From a virus, in IMG/VR virus record IMGVR_UViG_3300032334_000481, positions 1 to 56,598 of that record: a stretch of DNA of 56,598 bases. One strand, given 5' to 3'. Below are positions 50,832 through 56,598 of the stretch, one piece after another. Made by a program: the position numbers and the translations under genes. Under the pieces are notes generated by a model. The model searched no databases. It was not told the origin of the DNA and saw nothing but the letters and a program-made list of their open reading frames with translations. How positions within the stretch are numbered: position 1 is the first letter of the stretch; each line of letters opens with the position of its first letter.

Positions 50832-50996
50832 CTAGGTTTTGAGTGTTTTCGATTTTTTCAAACGGTGAAAATATGAGACACCAAACCCTCATATCTGCCT
50901 GTATGCAATGAAGTTGCCAGATAGGGCAAATAAGGGTTTAAATGCCCCATAGAGACGATAAAAGGTATGCACCCTAACATCTATAGCCCCAAAATG

Positions 50997-51005
50997 TGAT
51001 ATACT
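50997..51005 (+). promoter_or_regulatory. Extended -10 promoter of first rightward gene (TGA-TATACT)
   Basis: TGATATACT; the predicted transcript starts near 51012 and carries SD GAGAGAG before the ATG at 51032. It does not match the PafBC-type promoters that follow. Confidence 0.5.
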
Positions 51006-51031
51006 ATAAATCTACCGAAAGAGAGAGCGAT

Positions 51032-51214
51032 ATGGACGAAAAAGTACAATACGTCAAACACTACGAATCAAAAGAATATCTTGAAGCATGCATAGCAGCC
51101 AAGATGACATCAAAAGAGATAGCCAATCAGAGTAAAGTGTCATATAAGTTAATTAACTATTGGCTGATAAAGCATGGATTGCTTCGCAATACCCCAGACG
51201 TTAGGCTACCATAA
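51032..51214 (+). CDS. Small HTH-like DNA-binding protein
   Basis: 60 residues. EYLEACIAAKMTSKEIANQSKVSYKLINYWLIKHGLLR reads as a helix-turn-helix of the resolvase/sigma-like type (TSKEIANQSKVSYKLINYWL). It is the first gene of the rightward block, so a regulator is plausible. The ATG at 51032, with SD AAAGAGAG, is preferred over the GTG at 50996, which would precede the promoter. Confidence 0.7.
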   Translation: MDEKVQYVKHYESKEYLEACIAAKMTSKEIANQSKVSYKLINYWLIKHGLLRNTPDVRLP

Positions 51215-51743: not shown

Positions 51744-51765
51744 TGTCGGTGGTCTTGTGTATAAT
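51744..51765 (+). promoter_or_regulatory. PafBC-type promoter 1
   Basis: TGTCGGTG, 8 bases, TATAAT. Only copy with G at the R position of the consensus TGTCRGTG-N8-TANNNT. Confidence 0.8.
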
Positions 51766-51792
51766 AGTAGTATCAAAAGAAATGGAAAATAT

Positions 51793-51927
51793 ATGTCATC
51801 AGAATCAAAAAAATACACCCTAGTAGAATACACCTTTGGTGGTCAGCGTGTCGTGTCTGCTATCCATCACCTAGACCTAATCAAGTTCCTAATTGAGAAC
51901 AAAGACGCTACTATAATCAAAAAGTAG
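51793..51927 (+). CDS. 44-aa protein, unknown
   Basis: Beta-then-helix pattern (KKYTLVEYTFGGQRVVSAIHHLDLIKFLIENKDATII), with possible small nucleic-acid- or protein-binding fold; not recognised. The start at 51793 follows promoter 1, with an AAAGAAATGG-type SD. Confidence 0.6.
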   Translation: MSSESKKYTLVEYTFGGQRVVSAIHHLDLIKFLIENKDATIIKK

Positions 51928-51929
51928 TT

Positions 51930-51951
51930 TGTCAGTGGTATCCCCTATAAT
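51930..51951 (+). promoter_or_regulatory. PafBC-type promoter 2
   Basis: TTGTCAGTG, 8 bases, TATAAT: a complete match to the longer consensus with the leading T. It begins right after the previous stop codon. Confidence 0.85.
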
Positions 51952-51986
51952 AGAATAATCAAACCCCTAAAAGAAAGAAATACTAA

Positions 51987-52157
51987 ATGAATATCTATTC
52001 ACTAATAATCACAGATGTAGCAACAGGCGTAGCCCCTATCTATGAAGTTCATAGTTGGGAAAAGGTTGAAGAAATTATCCGTTCCACTATGGAACTAACC
52101 AAGAATGAGTTTATCTTTGAAGTAGTAGGCAGAGCAAACTCTAAGTCGGTGAATTAG
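51987..52157 (+). CDS. 56-aa protein, unknown
   Basis: MNIYSLIITDVATGVAPIYEVH opens with two strands and a helix follows (SWEKVEEIIRSTMELTKNEFIFEVVG). No family recognised. SD AAAGAAAG upstream; transcribed from promoter 2. Confidence 0.6.
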   Translation: MNIYSLIITDVATGVAPIYEVHSWEKVEEIIRSTMELTKNEFIFEVVGRANSKSVN

Positions 52158-52159
52158 TT

Positions 52160-52327
52160 GTGGCTGATATCACTTATCTTGTTAGTCGTGTTGTTCGTAT
52201 GGGTAAAACAGTAGCCCCCTTTGCTATCGCAAAGATAAAAGCGTATGCGTGTAAGCGTTGCTATACAATCGCAAGCGTATCACTATTAGATAATAAAATC
52301 ACAGTAAAGAAATGTAGGTGTGTGTAA
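52160..52327 (+). CDS. 55-aa Cys-rich protein (zinc-ribbon-like)
   Basis: GTG start two bases after the previous stop. An N-terminal basic helix is followed by CKRC (C31, C34) and CRC (C52, C54) around a short beta stretch. This could make a four-Cys zinc site. The ATG at codon 14 is an alternative start. Confidence 0.6.
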   Translation: MADITYLVSRVVRMGKTVAPFAIAKIKAYACKRCYTIASVSLLDNKITVKKCRCV

Positions 52328-52401
52328 TGGGTATTGAAACAATCCTATTGTTAGCAGTAGCGTATCTATTCTTCAAGGATAAGGAAAAGAAGAATGACTA
52401 A
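52327..52401 (+). CDS. 24-aa membrane micropeptide
   Basis: MGIETILLLAVAYLFFKDKEKKND: one short hydrophobic helix with a basic tail. The start overlaps the previous stop (TAATG) and the end overlaps the next gene by 8 bases. The tight coupling argues it is translated. Confidence 0.5.
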   Translation: MGIETILLLAVAYLFFKDKEKKND

Positions 52402-52528
52402 GCCATTTATCTTCACAGGCTTAGGCTTATTCCTAATAACTGCTTGGTCATTCGTATCTCAAATACATTGGGGTAGTGTGATGGGTTGTGTAGCAGGATA
52501 TAGCCTAATGGATATGCTATTCAATTAG
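52394..52528 (+). CDS. 44-aa small membrane protein
   Basis: Two hydrophobic segments (FIFTGLGLFLITAWSFV and VMGCVAGYSLMDMLF) around a short loop. Last gene of the promoter-2 operon, directly before a terminator. Confidence 0.6.
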   Translation: MTKPFIFTGLGLFLITAWSFVSQIHWGSVMGCVAGYSLMDMLFN

Positions 52529-52569
52529 ATTGGTGGGTGTGTCGCTACTTGACATACCCCCAATTTTGG
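52529..52569 (+). terminator. Terminator after promoter-2 operon
   Basis: Stem ATTGG-GGGTGTGTC paired with GACATACCC-CCAAT (one bulge, one wobble), followed by TTTT. Confidence 0.7.
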
Positions 52570-52599
52570 CGTGCGTCCCAATTATAACAAAATGATAAC
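52570..52599 (+). repeat. GC-rich intergenic repeat, copy 2
   Basis: GCGTGCGTCCC, then AATTATAACAAAATGATAAC. Confidence 0.65.
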
Positions 52600-52643
52600 G
52601 AATAATGATAAATAGGTAAAATAGGCGTGTTTTAGGGGTCAAA

Positions 52644-52665
52644 TGTCAGTGGTAGGGTATACAGT
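52644..52665 (+). promoter_or_regulatory. PafBC-type promoter 3
   Basis: TGTCAGTG, 8 bases, TACAGT. Predicted +1 near 52672, four bases before the structured RNA element. Confidence 0.8.
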
Positions 52666-52675
52666 ATAAGTATAA

Positions 52676-52733
52676 AGCAAATGAGCCTTAGCAAATAAAC
52701 GAGAAATCGGTGAGCCTAAGCAAATAAGTTGCT
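52676..52733 (+). ncRNA. Twin-internal-loop structured element, locus 1 (5' leader)
   Basis: P1 AGCAA/TTGCT; loop ATGAGC facing CAAATAAG; P2 CTTAG/CTAAG; loop CAAATAAA facing GTGAGC; P3 CGA/TCG closed by a GAAA tetraloop. It fills the 5' leader of the 63-aa gene. It also contains two tiny MSLSK frames. Confidence 0.7.
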
Positions 52734-52764
52734 AAAAGTTTCCTACTAATGAAAGGGGTCAGCA

Positions 52765-52956
52765 ATGACTTACTATGATAACTATGATGATGACGCTCAA
52801 TACGCTAAGGAAGTGTATTGGGATAGTAAGGGTATGGGTTATCTAAACCCTGCTCCTGCTCCTGTTGTGTATGTGAGAGATACCCAATGTCCTACCTGTA
52901 AGCGTTGGGGTTCTGCTAAGGCAGTTGCTTCACACGCTACTAAGTGTAAGGCTTAG
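52765..52956 (+). CDS. 63-aa zinc-finger-like protein
   Basis: Acidic Tyr/Asp-rich start, Pro/Ala linker, then CPTCKRWGSAKAVASHATKC: C-x2-C-x12-H-x3-C, the spacing of a small zinc finger. Good SD GAAAGGGG. Likely nucleic-acid or protein binding. Preceded by RNA locus 1. Confidence 0.7.
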   Translation: MTYYDNYDDDAQYAKEVYWDSKGMGYLNPAPAPVVYVRDTQCPTCKRWGSAKAVASHATKCKA

Positions 52957-52961
52957 TATTT

Positions 52962-52988
52962 GGTGGTAGTATCACTACCCCAAAAAAA
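52962..52988 (+). terminator. Hairpin after 63-aa gene
   Basis: GGTAGT-ATC-ACTACC stem extended by GG/CC and TTT/AAA. No T tract follows, so termination would be weak or the stem only protects the end. Confidence 0.5.
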
Positions 52989-53019
52989 CCGCACGCCCGA
53001 TTTATAACAAAATGATAAC
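52989..53019 (+). repeat. GC-rich intergenic repeat, copy 3
   Basis: CCGCACGCCCGA, then TTTATAACAAAATGATAAC. Confidence 0.7.
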
Positions 53020-53052
53020 AAAATAGCAAAACACCCTAAAATAGCCCCTAAA

Positions 53053-53074
53053 TGTCAGTGGTTAGGTGTATAGT
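53053..53074 (+). promoter_or_regulatory. PafBC-type promoter 4 (leaderless)
   Basis: TGTCAGTG, 8 bases, TATAGT; six bases later the ATG at 53081, so +1 and start codon coincide. Confidence 0.8.
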
Positions 53075-53080
53075 GAAACT

Positions 53081-53194
53081 ATGAAAGATAAAAAGACAGA
53101 ACTAACCATAATGCTTGCCAAGTATGCGAGAGCAGGTATTCCCCTAACCCCAGCAGAGAGAAACCTAGTCAAGTATTTACTAAGTAAACAATAG
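53081..53194 (+). CDS. 37-aa basic protein, leaderless
   Basis: Helical, with TELTIMLAKYARAGIPLTPAERNLVKYLLS, resembling a fragment of a small DNA-binding or J-type helix pair; not recognised. No Shine-Dalgarno can exist, because the start lies at the predicted +1 of promoter 4. Confidence 0.6.
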   Translation: MKDKKTELTIMLAKYARAGIPLTPAERNLVKYLLSKQ

Positions 53195-53232
53195 GTAAAC
53201 AATTTGCGAAACACCCTAAAAACAGGCTCAAA

Positions 53233-53254
53233 TGTCAGTGGTTAGTGGTAATGT
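53233..53254 (+). promoter_or_regulatory. PafBC-type promoter 5
   Basis: TGTCAGTG, 8 bases, TAATGT: fits TANNNT but is a poor -10. Confidence 0.7.
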
Positions 53255-53295
53255 AATAATAGATAAATAAATAACTAATAAAAGAAAGGGTCTAA

Positions 53296-53415
53296 ATGAC
53301 TACTTATGAGATGAAAATGAGATACAAGGAACTTATGCGTATCGCAGAAAGCGAATGTATGCTCGCTAGTGAGTTTGATGAACTACAAGCGTTATTCGTA
53401 AAACTAAATAAATAA
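53296..53415 (+). CDS. 39-aa helical protein, unknown
   Basis: TYEMKMRYKELMRIAESECMLASEFDELQALFVKL: one long amphipathic helix or coiled coil. SD AAAGAAAGGG; follows promoter 5. Confidence 0.55.
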   Translation: MTTYEMKMRYKELMRIAESECMLASEFDELQALFVKLNK

Positions 53416-53423
53416 ATAATCTT

Positions 53424-53495
53424 CGTTAGATAATGAGCCTAATTAGGTGAGCCTAGAAATAGCAAATAAACTAATTAGCAAATAAGTATCTAACG
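53424..53495 (+). ncRNA. Twin-internal-loop structured element, locus 2 (intergenic)
   Basis: P1 CGTTAGATA/TATCTAACG (9 pairs); loop ATGAGC facing CAAATAAG; P2 CTAATTAG/CTAATTAG; loop GTGAGC facing CAAATAAA; P3 CTA/TAG with GAAA tetraloop. It lies between two genes with no promoter of its own, so it is probably inside the mRNA. Confidence 0.75.
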
Positions 53496-53543
53496 CCAAC
53501 AAAACTAAATAAATAATAATCTACAAAAAGAAATGAGAAATAA

Positions 53544-53954
53544 ATGAAACTAAAAACTTGGAAATCTACCCAAATCCTTCTATCACTTAGCGACTATCGC
53601 AAGTTCTATGCTTCTATCGCAGAATTGCCTATTAGCGAAAAGCATTCCCTTATTCATAACAAACTAATTGGTCTTAGCACTATTTACCTAAACTATGACT
53701 TTGAGAATGACACTATGCTAACTCAAAAAAATAGTGAATGGAAATACTCTGCTGAATGCGATGCGTTCGCTATGAGTGAGTTTGCTAAAACTAAAAAAAT
53801 GCTTGCTGAACTTGATGAGTTAGGCGTTCCAGATTATCATAACGGAATGCGTGTCAGTGATGGCGAAACTTATTTCTTAGGTTTTCTAAAAATGGAATGC
53901 GTGTTGCGTTCTCGTGTGTTGCTTGCTCACTCGTGGAGAATAGAGCAACGCTAA
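53544..53954 (+). CDS. 136-aa protein, unknown
   Basis: Largest gene of the rightward block. Mostly helical (WKSTQILLSLSDYRKFYASIAELPISEKHSLIHNKLIGL; FAKTKKMLAELDELGVPDY), ending KMECVLRSRVLLAHSWRIEQR. No family recognised. The leader AAAAAGAAATGAGAAATAA is shared with other genes here. Confidence 0.7.
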   Translation: MKLKTWKSTQILLSLSDYRKFYASIAELPISEKHSLIHNKLIGLSTIYLNYDFENDTMLTQKNSEWKYSAECDAFAMSEFAKTKKMLAELDELGVPDYHNGMRVSDGETYFLGFLKMECVLRSRVLLAHSWRIEQR

Positions 53955-53959
53955 TAATT

Positions 53960-53984
53960 TTTTGGTAGCAATACCAAAATTTTT
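53960..53984 (+). terminator. Terminator after 136-aa gene
   Basis: Stem TTTTGGTA-GCAA-TACCAAAA (GNRA loop) followed by TTTTT. Confidence 0.8.
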
Positions 53985-54025
53985 GCCGCACGCCCCCAGC
54001 GACACGCCCGAAAAACATTGATAAC
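53985..54025 (+). repeat. GC-rich intergenic repeat, copy 4
   Basis: GCCGCACGCCCCC, then ACACGCCCGAA, ending ATTGATAAC; the GC part is duplicated. Confidence 0.6.
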
Positions 54026-54069
54026 ACTATTGTTATAAAGGCATAAAAAGGTGTGTTTGTCCGCCTAAA

Positions 54070-54091
54070 TGTCAGTGGTTAGGTTTATACT
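54070..54091 (+). promoter_or_regulatory. PafBC-type promoter 6
   Basis: TGTCAGTG, 8 bases, TATACT. Confidence 0.8.
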
Positions 54092-54121
54092 GTAAGTAGA
54101 TAAAAAGAAATGAGAAATAAA

Positions 54122-54235
54122 TTGAGTAAAGATACTGCCGAATGCTCCAAGTGTGGAGTTGTTATTGAGTTCGCTACAAGCGAAGAGTTTGAGAAATTGG
54201 TTGATGAACACATTCACCGCTATCCACTAGGCTAA
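54122..54235 (+). CDS. 37-aa mini zinc-finger protein
   Basis: Residues ECSKCGVVIEFATSEEFEKLVDEHIHRYP: CxxC, helix, then HxH, a possible one-zinc fold. The TTG start at 54122 has the same leader as its neighbours. An in-frame ATG at 54110 would add four residues but has no spaced SD. The stop overlaps promoter 7. Confidence 0.6.
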   Translation: MSKDTAECSKCGVVIEFATSEEFEKLVDEHIHRYPLG

Positions 54236-54236
54236 A

Positions 54237-54258
54237 TGTCAGTGGTTAGTTGTATAAT
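54237..54258 (+). promoter_or_regulatory. PafBC-type promoter 7
   Basis: TGTCAGTG, 8 bases, TATAAT; starts one base after the previous stop. Confidence 0.85.
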
Positions 54259-54289
54259 TGTAAATAGATAAAAAGAATAGGAAATAAAA

Positions 54290-54451
54290 ATGGTTGGAAT
54301 TATCTGTGTGTATGATGGAACTAAGACTTGGGCTTACATCTGCCCTACTTGTAAAGAGTATGATGGTCTAATGGAAATTAGCAAGGCAGTCAAAGAGTAT
54401 GACTTTATTGCTGAAATGTATGCTGATGAAATAGCGTTTATGCCTAGTTAG
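54290..54451 (+). CDS. 53-aa protein with CPTC motif
   Basis: VGIICVYDGTKTWAYICPTCKEYDGLMEISKAVKEYDFIAEMYADEIAF: beta-hairpin with CxxC (18-21) plus C6, then an acidic helix. Possible zinc-ribbon mini-protein. SD AAGAATAGGAAA. Confidence 0.6.
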   Translation: MVGIICVYDGTKTWAYICPTCKEYDGLMEISKAVKEYDFIAEMYADEIAFMPS

Positions 54452-54457
54452 CATAAA

Positions 54458-54479
54458 TGTCAGTGGTATCCTGTATAAT
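54458..54479 (+). promoter_or_regulatory. PafBC-type promoter 8
   Basis: TGTCAGTG, 8 bases, TATAAT. It drives the three-gene unit 54508-55176. Confidence 0.85.
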
Positions 54480-54507
54480 TGTAAGTAAGAAAAGAATAGG
54501 AAAATAA

Positions 54508-54678
54508 ATGTTAGATAAAGAATTTGATACTTTTAGACTAATGAATGAACTAAGACTAAAAGATGGTGTTGCTGGTGAAAACCCTGTTGCCTATGCCTAT
54601 GGTCTATGTTTTGGACAACTAACTCAAAAGCAAAAAGCGTTGATTGCTCAAATTGTAAATAAGATGGAGAATAAATAA
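54508..54678 (+). CDS. 56-aa helical protein, unknown
   Basis: LDKEFDTFRLMNELRLKDGVAGENPVAYAYGLCFGQLTQKQKALIAQIVNKMENK; two helices around a loop. No family recognised. The stop overlaps the next start (TAATG). Confidence 0.6.
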   Translation: MLDKEFDTFRLMNELRLKDGVAGENPVAYAYGLCFGQLTQKQKALIAQIVNKMENK

Positions 54679-54950
54679 TGAAGTTCAATGTAATTAGTGA
54701 TGCTGGACACGCTTGGCTTGAAGTAAGCCTAGACCAATTTCCTAACGCCAAACAATTTGGAACTGGCTGTGGATACATAAATGGTAATACAATTTATCTT
54801 GAAGAAGACTTTGAAATGCCACAATTCTTAGGCGACTTAGTATTCAACGGAACTCCAATGAGCGAAATACAACTTAGCGAAATTGAAGTTGATGATGAAT
54901 GGTATGGCAGAAACTATGCTCGCAATGAAGACTTATTCTCAATAAAATAA
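54678..54950 (+). CDS. 90-aa acidic protein, unknown
   Basis: KFNVISDAGHAWLEVSLDQFPNAKQFGTGCGYINGNTIYLEEDFEMPQFLGDL then MSEIQLSEIEVDDEWYGRNYARNEDLFS. The strongly acidic beta-rich character resembles DNA-mimic or anti-defence mini-proteins, but that is only composition. The first half (GHAWLEVSLDQF) recalls small conserved phage proteins of unknown role. Confidence 0.6.
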   Translation: MKFNVISDAGHAWLEVSLDQFPNAKQFGTGCGYINGNTIYLEEDFEMPQFLGDLVFNGTPMSEIQLSEIEVDDEWYGRNYARNEDLFSIK

Positions 54951-54969
54951 ATAGTAAAGGAAAATAAAA

Positions 54970-55176
54970 ATGGTAAAAGTTGCTCTGGTAATCTCAACTC
55001 TAATTCTAGGAATTTTTAGTTTTGTAATTGCTGACGCTTATTCTTACACTGCCCTAATCAATTCTCAAGAGAGTTATCAAGTTCTCTCTGGTCAGTGGGC
55101 GTTAGTTGGAACTGAATTAGTAATCGGTTCGCTATTGCTGGCAGTTGGTTTCATAATCAAATCACGCAAACGCTAA
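54970..55176 (+). CDS. 68-aa two-helix membrane protein
   Basis: First hydrophobic helix VALVISTLILGIFSFVIADAY, short external loop with Ser/Gln, second helix LVIGSLLLAVGFII, basic end KSRKR. This fits a small holin or a superinfection-exclusion type protein, among other options. SD AAAGGAAA. Confidence 0.65.
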   Translation: MVKVALVISTLILGIFSFVIADAYSYTALINSQESYQVLSGQWALVGTELVIGSLLLAVGFIIKSRKR

Positions 55177-55183
55177 TCAAAAT

Positions 55184-55210
55184 AATTTTGGGGCTAACTA
55201 CCCCGAAATT
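55184..55210 (+). terminator. Terminator after 68-aa gene
   Basis: Stem AATTTTGGGG / CCCCGAAATT (10 pairs, one wobble) with loop CTAACTA, followed by T C C only. Confidence 0.7.
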
Positions 55211-55211
55211 T

Positions 55212-55244
55212 CCGCACGCCCCCGAATTATAACAGTTTGATAAC
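55212..55244 (+). repeat. GC-rich intergenic repeat, copy 5
   Basis: CCGCACGCCCCCGAA, then TTATAACAGTTTGATAAC. Confidence 0.7.
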
Positions 55245-55260
55245 AAAGGGTGTTTTGCTA

Positions 55261-55289
55261 TTGACAAATGGCGTTTTGTGTGTAATAAT
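55261..55289 (+). promoter_or_regulatory. Sigma-70-like promoter in front of RNA locus 3
   Basis: TTGACA (55261-55266), 16-17 bases, TAATAAT. The transcript would carry the RNA element about 30 bases downstream. Confidence 0.55.
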
Positions 55290-55321
55290 AGATATATAAA
55301 TAAATAAAGCAACAAAAGGAG

Positions 55322-55390
55322 CCACGACAGTGAGCCTAGCAAATAAGTCGAACATCTGTTCGAATGAGCCTAGCAAGTAAATGTCAGTGG
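55322..55390 (+). ncRNA. Twin-internal-loop structured element, locus 3 (overlaps promoter motif)
   Basis: P1 CCACGACA paired with TGTC-GTGG (one bulged A) of promoter 9; loop GTGAGC facing CAAGTAAA; P2 CTAG/CTAG; loop CAAATAAG facing ATGAGC; P3 TCGAAC/GTTCGA with loop ATCT. Confidence 0.7.
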
Positions 55391-55403
55391 TATCCCTTAT
55401 AAT
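55382..55403 (+). promoter_or_regulatory. PafBC-type promoter 9
   Basis: TGTCAGTG, 8 bases, TATAAT. Its first half forms one arm of P1 of RNA locus 3 in any transcript from upstream. Confidence 0.85.
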
Positions 55404-55430
55404 TGAACTACATAAAAAGAAAGATAACTA

Positions 55431-55598
55431 ATGAAGAAACCTAGAATGACAGTTGCCGAAAAGCGTTTTGAAACCCTAATCTCCAAGTTTGTATTTGTTG
55501 AGAATGGTGGAAGACTAATTGATAGCCCCCAGTGGAAAATGCTAAACAAGCAGACCCAAGACGCTTACATAACCCTAATCGCAACTAAGACACGCTAA
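55431..55598 (+). CDS. 55-aa basic protein, unknown
   Basis: KKPRMTVAEKRFETLISKFVFVENGGRLIDSPQWKMLNKQTQDAYITLIATKTR: basic start, mixed helices, several Lys/Arg; possible nucleic-acid binding. SD AAAGAAAG; driven by promoter 9. Confidence 0.6.
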   Translation: MKKPRMTVAEKRFETLISKFVFVENGGRLIDSPQWKMLNKQTQDAYITLIATKTR

Positions 55599-55605
55599 CC
55601 CTAAA

Positions 55606-55627
55606 TGTCAGTGGTTAGTTGTATAAT
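55606..55627 (+). promoter_or_regulatory. PafBC-type promoter 10
   Basis: TGTCAGTG, 8 bases, TATAAT. Confidence 0.85.
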
Positions 55628-55652
55628 TGAAATCTAAAGAAAGAAGAAACTA

Positions 55653-55751
55653 ATGGAAGATTGGAAAATGGCGTTAGCCGAAATTCAAAAGTCAATGAGA
55701 GAAGACTTTATCTCTCAAATCAAAACTTCAAAAGAAAAGGAAAATAACTAA
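55653..55751 (+). CDS. 32-aa helical peptide
   Basis: EDWKMALAEIQKSMREDFISQIKTSKEKENN: one amphipathic helix. SD AAAGAAAG; coupled to the next gene by TAATG. Confidence 0.55.
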   Translation: MEDWKMALAEIQKSMREDFISQIKTSKEKENN

Positions 55752-55912
55752 TGGAAGAATTCTACAAGAGCAGAGAAGAAGATTTTGCTAAGTGGATTGA
55801 AAAAAATCAAATGCTGATTGACAACAACTTATTTACAGCAAAAGAAATTTTTGAACACGCTTATACACTTGGAGCGTTGTATGAAATCAAAAGTAGAAAC
55901 GGAGAAATCTAA
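55751..55912 (+). CDS. 53-aa helical protein, unknown
   Basis: EEFYKSREEDFAKWIEKNQMLIDNNLFTAKEIFEHAYTLGALYEIKSRNGEI: two helices, acidic start. Translationally coupled on both sides (TAATG before; TAAAATG after). No family recognised. Confidence 0.6.
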   Translation: MEEFYKSREEDFAKWIEKNQMLIDNNLFTAKEIFEHAYTLGALYEIKSRNGEI

Positions 55913-55913
55913 A

Positions 55914-56114
55914 ATGGACATTAGAGAAAAGTTTACTCAAGAAGAACTAGAAGAACAGTTTGATGAAATGCTAGATGAAACTTATCCAGAATTCAAAATT
56001 GGTTATTCAACTTTTTATCCATCACAAATTTTAGCAAACTGCGACCCAATCGCTTATCAAATCTCTGTTGATGAATACATAGATTTTCTTCAAGAGCAGG
56101 AAGACGAAGAGTGA
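55914..56114 (+). CDS. 66-aa acidic protein, unknown
   Basis: DIREKFTQEELEEQFDEMLDETYPEFKIGYSTFYPSQILANCDPIAYQISVDEYIDFLQEQEDEE. The pattern resembles a small conserved phage protein type, function unknown to me. Strongly acidic. The start at 55914 is chosen because a longer reading from 55818 lies inside the previous gene in another frame. Confidence 0.65.
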   Translation: MDIREKFTQEELEEQFDEMLDETYPEFKIGYSTFYPSQILANCDPIAYQISVDEYIDFLQEQEDEE

Positions 56115-56170
56115 TAACTTTTTTTATTCTACTAACAGTTGTTTTGCTAGTAGTGTTTTTTATTAGTTGA
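56111..56170 (+). CDS. 19-aa hydrophobic micropeptide
   Basis: ITFFILLTVVLLVVFFIS after a GTG start that overlaps the previous stop (GTGA). A single transmembrane helix with almost no tail. Coding status rests on coupling and composition only. Confidence 0.4.
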   Translation: MITFFILLTVVLLVVFFIS

Positions 56171-56206
56171 TTTTGTGGGTGTAGTATTTATACTATGCCC
56201 CAAAAT
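56171..56206 (+). terminator. Hairpin after acidic/micropeptide operon
   Basis: GGGTGTAGTAT-TT-ATACTATGCCC with two wobbles, extended by TTTTG/CAAAA. No T tract follows. Confidence 0.6.
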
Positions 56207-56208
56207 TG

Positions 56209-56258
56209 CCGCACGCCAAATCTGCCTGGACACACGCACGCCCCGACACGCCCGAAAT
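56209..56258 (+). repeat. GC-rich intergenic repeat, copy 6 (expanded)
   Basis: Three CACGCC units (GCACGCCAAA, GCACGCCCCG, ACACGCCCGAA); the TTATAACA...TGATAAC half is missing. Confidence 0.55.
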
Positions 56259-56303
56259 CATTTAAGAAGATTAAATAATTTTCCCCGATTTCCTATTGCC
56301 AAA

Positions 56304-56325
56304 TGTCAGTGGTAGGGTGTAGAAT
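56304..56325 (+). promoter_or_regulatory. PafBC-type promoter 11
   Basis: TGTCAGTG, 8 bases, TAGAAT. Confidence 0.8.
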
Positions 56326-56350
56326 AGTATTATCAAGAAAGGAAAAACTA

Positions 56351-56479
56351 ATGGCTAAACACTATGTAATTATGGAATACACTAACGCTAAGGGAGAAAC
56401 TAAGACGGAAGCAATGCGTTCGGTTGACATCGCTGAATTTCTAACCAAATACCCTAACGCCAAGCGTGTCTATGGCTAA
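56351..56479 (+). CDS. 42-aa protein, unknown
   Basis: AKHYVIMEYTNAKGETKTEAMRSVDIAEFLTKYPNAKRVYG: strand-strand-helix mini-fold. SD AAAGGAAA. The stop overlaps the start of promoter 12. Confidence 0.6.
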   Translation: MAKHYVIMEYTNAKGETKTEAMRSVDIAEFLTKYPNAKRVYG

Positions 56480-56480
56480 A

Positions 56481-56502
56481 TGTCAGTGGTCGCTGGTAAA
56501 AT
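56481..56502 (+). promoter_or_regulatory. PafBC-type promoter 12
   Basis: TGTCAGTG, 8 bases, TAAAAT. Confidence 0.8.
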
Positions 56503-56531
56503 AATAACATCAAGAAGAAATGGAAAATAAA

Positions 56532-56598
56532 ATGGAAAAAGAAAATAGATACACTTTTGGTGGATTTGAGTATGGCTCACAGGGTCAGTTTCACCTAA
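56532..56598 (+). CDS. Start of a further small gene (truncated by window)
   Basis: 22 codons visible (EKENRYTFGGFEYGSQGQFHL); SD-like AAATGGAAAA; open at the window end. Follows promoter 12. Confidence 0.5.
   Translation, partial: MEKENRYTFGGFEYGSQGQFHL

What the first reader, a model, noticed from the sequence alone, without database searches (positions are those of the whole stretch)
51744..56502. Array of twelve PafBC-type DNA-damage promoters driving the phage mini-gene region
Twelve plus-strand sites fit TGTCRGTG-N8-TANNNT with no gaps (starts 51744, 51930, 52644, 53053, 53233, 54070, 54237, 54458, 55382, 55606, 56304, 56481). Eleven share the extra G after TGTCAGTG. Spacing to the -10 is always 8. 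Each stands directly before a small gene or operon. This is the published actinobacterial RecA-independent SOS consensus bound by PafBC, a WYL-domain activator. No PafBC gene is seen here, so the phage seems to borrow the host activator. That would switch on its accessory genes when single-stranded DNA or damage appears, for example during host genome breakdown. I saw no site of this type in the minus-strand late region.
Basis: partly seen in the sequence, partly recalled or inferred. Interest (0 to 1): 0.92.

Follow-up and report, generated by a model that had tools for sequence, protein, structure and literature searches.

The report
Phage promoter array matching host DNA-damage switch
A family of viruses of water-dwelling actinobacteria carries 10 to 24 copies of the promoter that actinobacteria use to turn on DNA-repair genes, placed before many tiny viral genes, so the virus probably uses the host's own single-stranded-DNA alarm to switch on its takeover genes.

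Summary
Twelve plus-strand TGTCRGTG-N8-TANNNT sites lie at the stated places (0.12 expected; none on the minus strand), each before a small gene. It is a trait of a phage group: of 120 IMG/VR loci fetched with a narrower form of the motif, 72 hold three or more sites, 71 of them on one strand only. The logo of 413 sites is TGTC(A/G)GTG(G/C)-N5-TG-n-TATAAT: a -26 element plus extended -10, no -35. This is the published mycobacterial RecA-NDp/PafBC consensus. No array record searched encodes a WYL protein. All six long records examined encode WhiB, so hosts are actinobacteria. PafC is in 383 of 395 genomes of class Actinomycetes; in 16 of 42 reduced genomes the same element stands before recA. 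Array genes with cultured relatives (DUF932, GP88) lie there in terminal regions of small genes, so 'early/host-takeover module' fits better than 'accessory genes'. The array runs past the window end (22-24 sites over 15 kb in relatives). Best reading: host PafBC, activated by ssDNA, drives these genes. The exact host, PafBC binding and timing are untested. I found no earlier report of PafBC-type phage promoters.

The parts
51744..51765 (+). -26 element + -10, site 1 (TGTCGGTG-N8-TATAAT); first start codon 51793
51930..51951 (+). site 2; operon from 51987
52644..52665 (+). site 3; structured leader, then gene at 52765
53053..53074 (+). site 4; ATG at 53081, 6 nt after the -10, probably leaderless
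53233..53254 (+). site 5; gene at 53296
54070..54091 (+). site 6; gene at 54110
54237..54258 (+). site 7; gene at 54290
54458..54479 (+). site 8; operon 54508-55176
55382..55403 (+). site 9; gene at 55431
55606..55627 (+). site 10; operon from 55653
56304..56325 (+). site 11; gene at 56351
56481..56502 (+). site 12; gene runs off the contig
51793..56598 (+). mini-gene module (proteins of about 30-136 aa, mostly without family match); shuffled homologues in relatives
55348..55363 (+). perfect LexA-type palindrome TCGAACATCTGTTCGA, 18 bp before site 9; may be the apical hairpin of an RNA element instead
50996..51214 (+). small putative HTH gene (fold judged by eye, no Pfam match) next to the array, no -26 site; no significant match in four long array-bearing relatives

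Best explanation
The array is a set of PafBC-class promoters: a -26 element TGTCRGTGG, then an extended -10 box at a fixed distance, with no -35. They drive a divergent, rapidly shuffled early (host-takeover) module of mini-genes in phages of actinobacteria. The phage brings no PafBC. Host PafBC, bound to ssDNA that arises when phage DNA enters, is processed or replicates (or when the host chromosome breaks), would dock between sigma-A region 4 and the -26 element and start transcription. Shown here: element, spacing, placement, conservation, absence of phage WYL genes, WhiB in long relatives, PafC in the presumed host class, and the same element before recA there. Inferred: the exact host, PafBC binding, ssDNA as the trigger, early timing.
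For: 12 sites vs 0.12 expected. 120 viral loci: 460 sites at spacing 8 vs 30 in all at spacings 4-7 and 9-12; 71 of 72 loci with 3+ sites are one-stranded (each locus was fetched by one such site). Control pattern 0 in 44 records. Logo of 413 sites: strong -26, G/C at +8, TG before TATAAT, no -35. 86% of 420 sites have a start codon within 90 nt, mostly 20-35 nt, vs 24% at random positions. Same consensus published for recA P1. Motif kept between phages with about 37-54% core-protein identity. No WYL in 44 records. WhiB in six long relatives. PafC in 383/395 Actinomycetes. Motif 118 vs control 36 in 42 small genomes, before recA in 16.
Against: The host of this contig is not identified. Mycobacterial sites prefer T before TGTC; here it is A in 11 of 12 and A 57% / T 37% in the family. 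Cultured relatives (six Stanwilliamsviridae-type Streptomyces phages, Gaia, Nebkiss) and the lake phage DSL-LC01 lack the array, and the matching region of Samisti12 shows no such element, so the module does not need PafBC in general. Many low-GC actinobacteria outside class Actinomycetes show neither PafC nor the element at recA; if the host were one of those, the model fails. No expression data.
Confidence: 0.78

Rival explanations
1. Phage-own middle promoters: a phage-encoded activator (as MotA in T4) binds TGTCAGTGG and the likeness to the PafBC element is convergent.
For: Architecture (element upstream of the -10, no -35) resembles phage middle promoters; a small putative HTH gene sits next to the array in window, G345, G002 and G006; phage WhiB proteins exist.
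Against: The HTH gene has no significant match in four other long array-bearing phages. WhiB is not known to read such an element (general knowledge). The match to the published consensus is exact in letters and spacing, and the same element stands before recA in actinobacteria.
Confidence: 0.13
2. The promoters are effectively constitutive in the host: basal PafBC activity or the extended -10 alone suffices, and they do not sense damage. This can be true together with PafBC recognition.
For: Extended -10 (TG-n-TATAAT) is common in the logo; Samisti12 small genes have apparently ordinary promoters in the matching place (judged by eye).
Against: The -26 element would not be so strictly kept in about 10-24 copies per phage if it were not read; G/C at +8 is kept in AT-rich DNA.
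Confidence: 0.2
3. Repeated DNA with another role (packaging, replication or recombination sites) rather than promoters.
For: Array genes are shuffled between relatives together with the element, as recombination sites would allow.
Against: One-strandedness, a -10 box at fixed distance, and start codons at fixed distance.
Confidence: 0.03

Closest known systems
RecA-NDp / PafBC promoters of mycobacteria (recA P1 type)
   Same: TGTCRGTG, 8-nt spacer, TANNNT; same class of element before recA in likely host groups
   Different: In a phage, about 10-24 copies in one block, before unknown mini-genes instead of repair genes; A more often than T before the element
Cyanophage genes under host PhoBR control (PMC10976474)
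   Same: Phage genes put under a host stress regulator
   Different: Different regulator and signal; here a whole array of near-identical promoters rather than scattered genes
T4 MotA/AsiA middle promoters (from memory)
   Same: Activator element upstream of a -10, no -35; recruitment through sigma region 4
   Different: T4 encodes its activator; here it appears to be the host's
Terminal small-gene region of Streptomyces phage Samisti12 (Stanwilliamsviridae)
   Same: Many small genes, apparently with single promoters; DUF932 homologue; related DnaE and capsid proteins in the family
   Different: No -26 element in that region; TAGACT-type -10 boxes judged by eye

Membership tests
PafBC-dependent (RecA-NDp) promoters | TGTCRGTG element | tested here: met
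   12 of 12; used as search key in relatives
PafBC-dependent (RecA-NDp) promoters | 8-nt spacer to TANNNT | tested here: met
   12 of 12; 460 vs 30 at other spacings in 120 loci
PafBC-dependent (RecA-NDp) promoters | no -35 element | tested here: met
   logo of 413 sites
PafBC-dependent (RecA-NDp) promoters | T before TGTC (weak position in the consensus) | tested here: inconclusive
   A in 11 of 12, T in 1; T in 37% of the family
PafBC-dependent (RecA-NDp) promoters | host encodes PafBC and uses the element at DNA-damage genes | tested here: inconclusive
   met for class Actinomycetes (383/395 with PafC; recA site in 16 of 42 small genomes); the actual host is unknown
PafBC-dependent (RecA-NDp) promoters | PafBC and ssDNA dependent activation | not testable with these tools
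   needs a bench assay
Phage middle promoters with phage-encoded activator (MotA type) | activator gene shared by all array-bearing phages | tested here: inconclusive
   WYL 0 of 44 records; neighbouring small HTH gene not found in four long array phages; WhiB is shared; no exhaustive search for an activator was made

The most novel reading that the evidence does not exclude
A widespread group of aquatic actinophages has placed a whole early/takeover regulon (about 10-24 promoters) under the host's ssDNA-sensing activator PafBC, so that infection-made ssDNA is the on-switch, in some relatives with LexA-type boxes nearby.
Probability: 0.6. Interest if true: 0.85.

Novelty: new variant of a known kind. 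Interest (0 to 1): 0.72.

Why it matters
It would show that phages use the RecA-independent arm of the actinobacterial DNA-damage response as an infection sensor, give a sequence mark for early modules in uncultured actinophages, and make a direct test possible in model hosts that have PafBC. It also points to a large set of unknown, probably takeover, mini-genes that can be listed simply by the promoter in front of them.

Tried and rejected
Motif scan of GTDB contigs was dominated by chance hits and gave only handles. A phylum-wide sample held mostly other classes; low-GC genomes there mostly lacked PafC and the recA element, which first seemed to contradict the model until class Actinomycetes was sampled. 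Cultured relatives as carriers of the array: rejected. Phage-encoded PafBC: rejected for the records searched. Small HTH gene as a universal activator: disfavoured. LexA boxes as a constant part of the design: not supported; few sites, and in the window the palindrome may be an RNA hairpin. Rfam families in the array: none. No paper on PafBC sites in phages was found in the held library.

Full report
Observation. The pattern TGTCRGTG-N8-TANNNT occurs exactly 12 times in the window, all on the + strand between 51744 and 56502, against 0.12 expected in shuffles. No other spacing gives a comparable set and the minus strand holds none. Every site is followed by a small open frame; leaders from the end of the -10 box are 17-42 nt except for 52644 (99 nt, with a structured leader) and 53053 (6 nt, probably leaderless). 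The contig ends inside the array.

Relatives. Within these, the broader pattern occurs 460 times at spacing 8 and 30 times in all at spacings 4-7 and 9-12. Because one TATAAT site at spacing 8 was the search key for each locus, about 340 of the 460 are independent of the search. Of 72 loci with three or more sites, 71 have them on one strand only. In 44 whole records the reversed control pattern occurs 0 times, while 43 carry the motif, up to 24 copies in a record. Contigs collinear with the window (G345, G002, G006) show that the array is divergent from the late genes and, in G002 and G006, runs on for about 15 kb with 22-24 sites; homologues of the window's mini-genes are present in a different order. 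Long records of a second lineage (G019, G024, G026, G027; 112-116 kb, capsid and portal about 37-51% identical) carry 8-10 sites in a 9-10 kb block. Cultured relatives found through the capsid, DnaE and ribonucleotide reductase proteins (Streptomyces phages Sham, Bmoc, BillNye, Coruscant, Wakanda and Riptide; Mycobacterium phages Gaia and Nebkiss) have at most one match, and lake phage DSL-LC01 none.

Anatomy. The logo of 413 non-redundant sites shows a fixed TGTC(A .87/G .13)GTG(G .82/C .16), a spacer whose main further feature is a TG one base before the -10 (extended -10), a TATAAT-like -10, no conserved -35, then an A/G-rich ribosome-binding stretch. The invariant letters are fixed by the search pattern; the +8 preference, the TG, the -10 letters and the lack of a -35 are not. 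86% of 420 sites have a plausible start codon within 90 nt, mostly 20-35 nt from the -10, against 24% for random positions on the same strand. These are promoters by every sequence criterion at hand.

Identity. PMC5656591 prints the mycobacterial RecA-independent consensus as tTGTCRgtg - 8 nt - TannnT, and PMC11804915 describes PafBC at a -26 element, inserted between the DNA and sigma-A domain 4, and activated by ssDNA bound to its WYL domains. The phage element is that consensus with G or C added. The window and 43 array-bearing records encode no WYL protein. Six long array-bearing records each encode a WhiB protein over the Pfam cut-off, a family confined to actinobacteria and their phages (general knowledge). 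PafC is found in 383 of 395 genomes of class Actinomycetes. In 42 small genomes of that class (1.2-1.9 Mb) the motif occurs 118 times against 36 for the reversed control, and in 16 of them it stands before recA. So small-genome members of the class have the activator gene and use the element where it is expected. Whether one of them is the host of this phage is not shown. Many low-GC actinobacteria outside the class have neither.

What the array drives. Window mini-genes have almost no family matches. In relatives the arrays include DUF932, GP88 and an Api92-like protein. The nearest cultured relatives of DUF932 lie at about 1.2 kb in Samisti12-like phages, with two places per record, as expected for terminal repeats. 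Those of GP88 lie at the right end of Trixie-like mycobacteriophages, the second annotated gene of a leftward operon; from general knowledge of L5-like phages this is the early operon. The small-gene region of Samisti12 shows no -26 element; by eye its genes have TAGACT-type -10 boxes and in places a -35. I therefore read the array as the early or host-takeover module with its usual promoters exchanged for PafBC-type ones.

Mechanism. Most likely: ssDNA made by infection (processing of incoming ends, replication, host breakdown) loads PafBC, and PafBC with host RNAP-sigmaA reads the array. Sequence, spacing, placement and conservation are shown; PafBC dependence, ssDNA trigger and timing are inferred. 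Main rivals are a phage-encoded activator with a convergent site, and constitutive use of extended -10 promoters.

Novelty. I found no report of PafBC promoters in phages in the held library, which lacks most subscription journals. Phages that place genes under a host stress regulator are known (cyanophage and PhoBR, PMC10976474), hence 'new variant of a known kind'.

Side finding. Array leaders and spacers hold a recurrent RNA-like element in which the internal loop (A/G)TGAGC / CAAATAA is repeated one to three times between helices whose letters covary. Modules: 22 on the array strand, 1 on the other, 0 in 1.16 Mb of control DNA. One window copy folds with z -2.7. Rfam gives no match.

Noticed in passing
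window 52681-52735, 53424-53496, 55330-55378; also L025, L039, L054, L068, L082, L097, L110, L122, L416, L424: Recurrent structured RNA-like element: internal loop (A/G)UGAGC / CAAAUAA repeated one to three times between covarying helices, on the array strand of these phages, no Rfam match.
   Followed up: partly
window 55348-55363; L048 7738, L062 9905 and 10622, L069, L422, L424: Perfect or near-perfect LexA-type palindromes CGAACAnnTGTTCG in arrays, some 33-65 bp before a -26 element; in the window, L082 and L042 the palindrome is also the apex of the RNA-like element.
   Followed up: partly
L473 and L485 (small actinobacterial genomes): The element also stands 24 nt before a gene that looks like carD (judged by eye from the protein start), besides recA.
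   Followed up: no
window 53053-53194 and similar units in L422, L424: ATG 6 nt after the -10 box: a probably leaderless mini-gene.
   Followed up: no
window 51685, 52557, 52977, 55202, 56198: Repeated CCGCACGCCC...TTATAACAAAATGATAAC stretches between units, of unknown role.
   Followed up: no
L418:16408-16698, L517:3678-4031, L413:14701-15012 and three more: WhiB-like proteins in six long array-bearing phage records; a possible second handle on sigma-A.
   Followed up: partly
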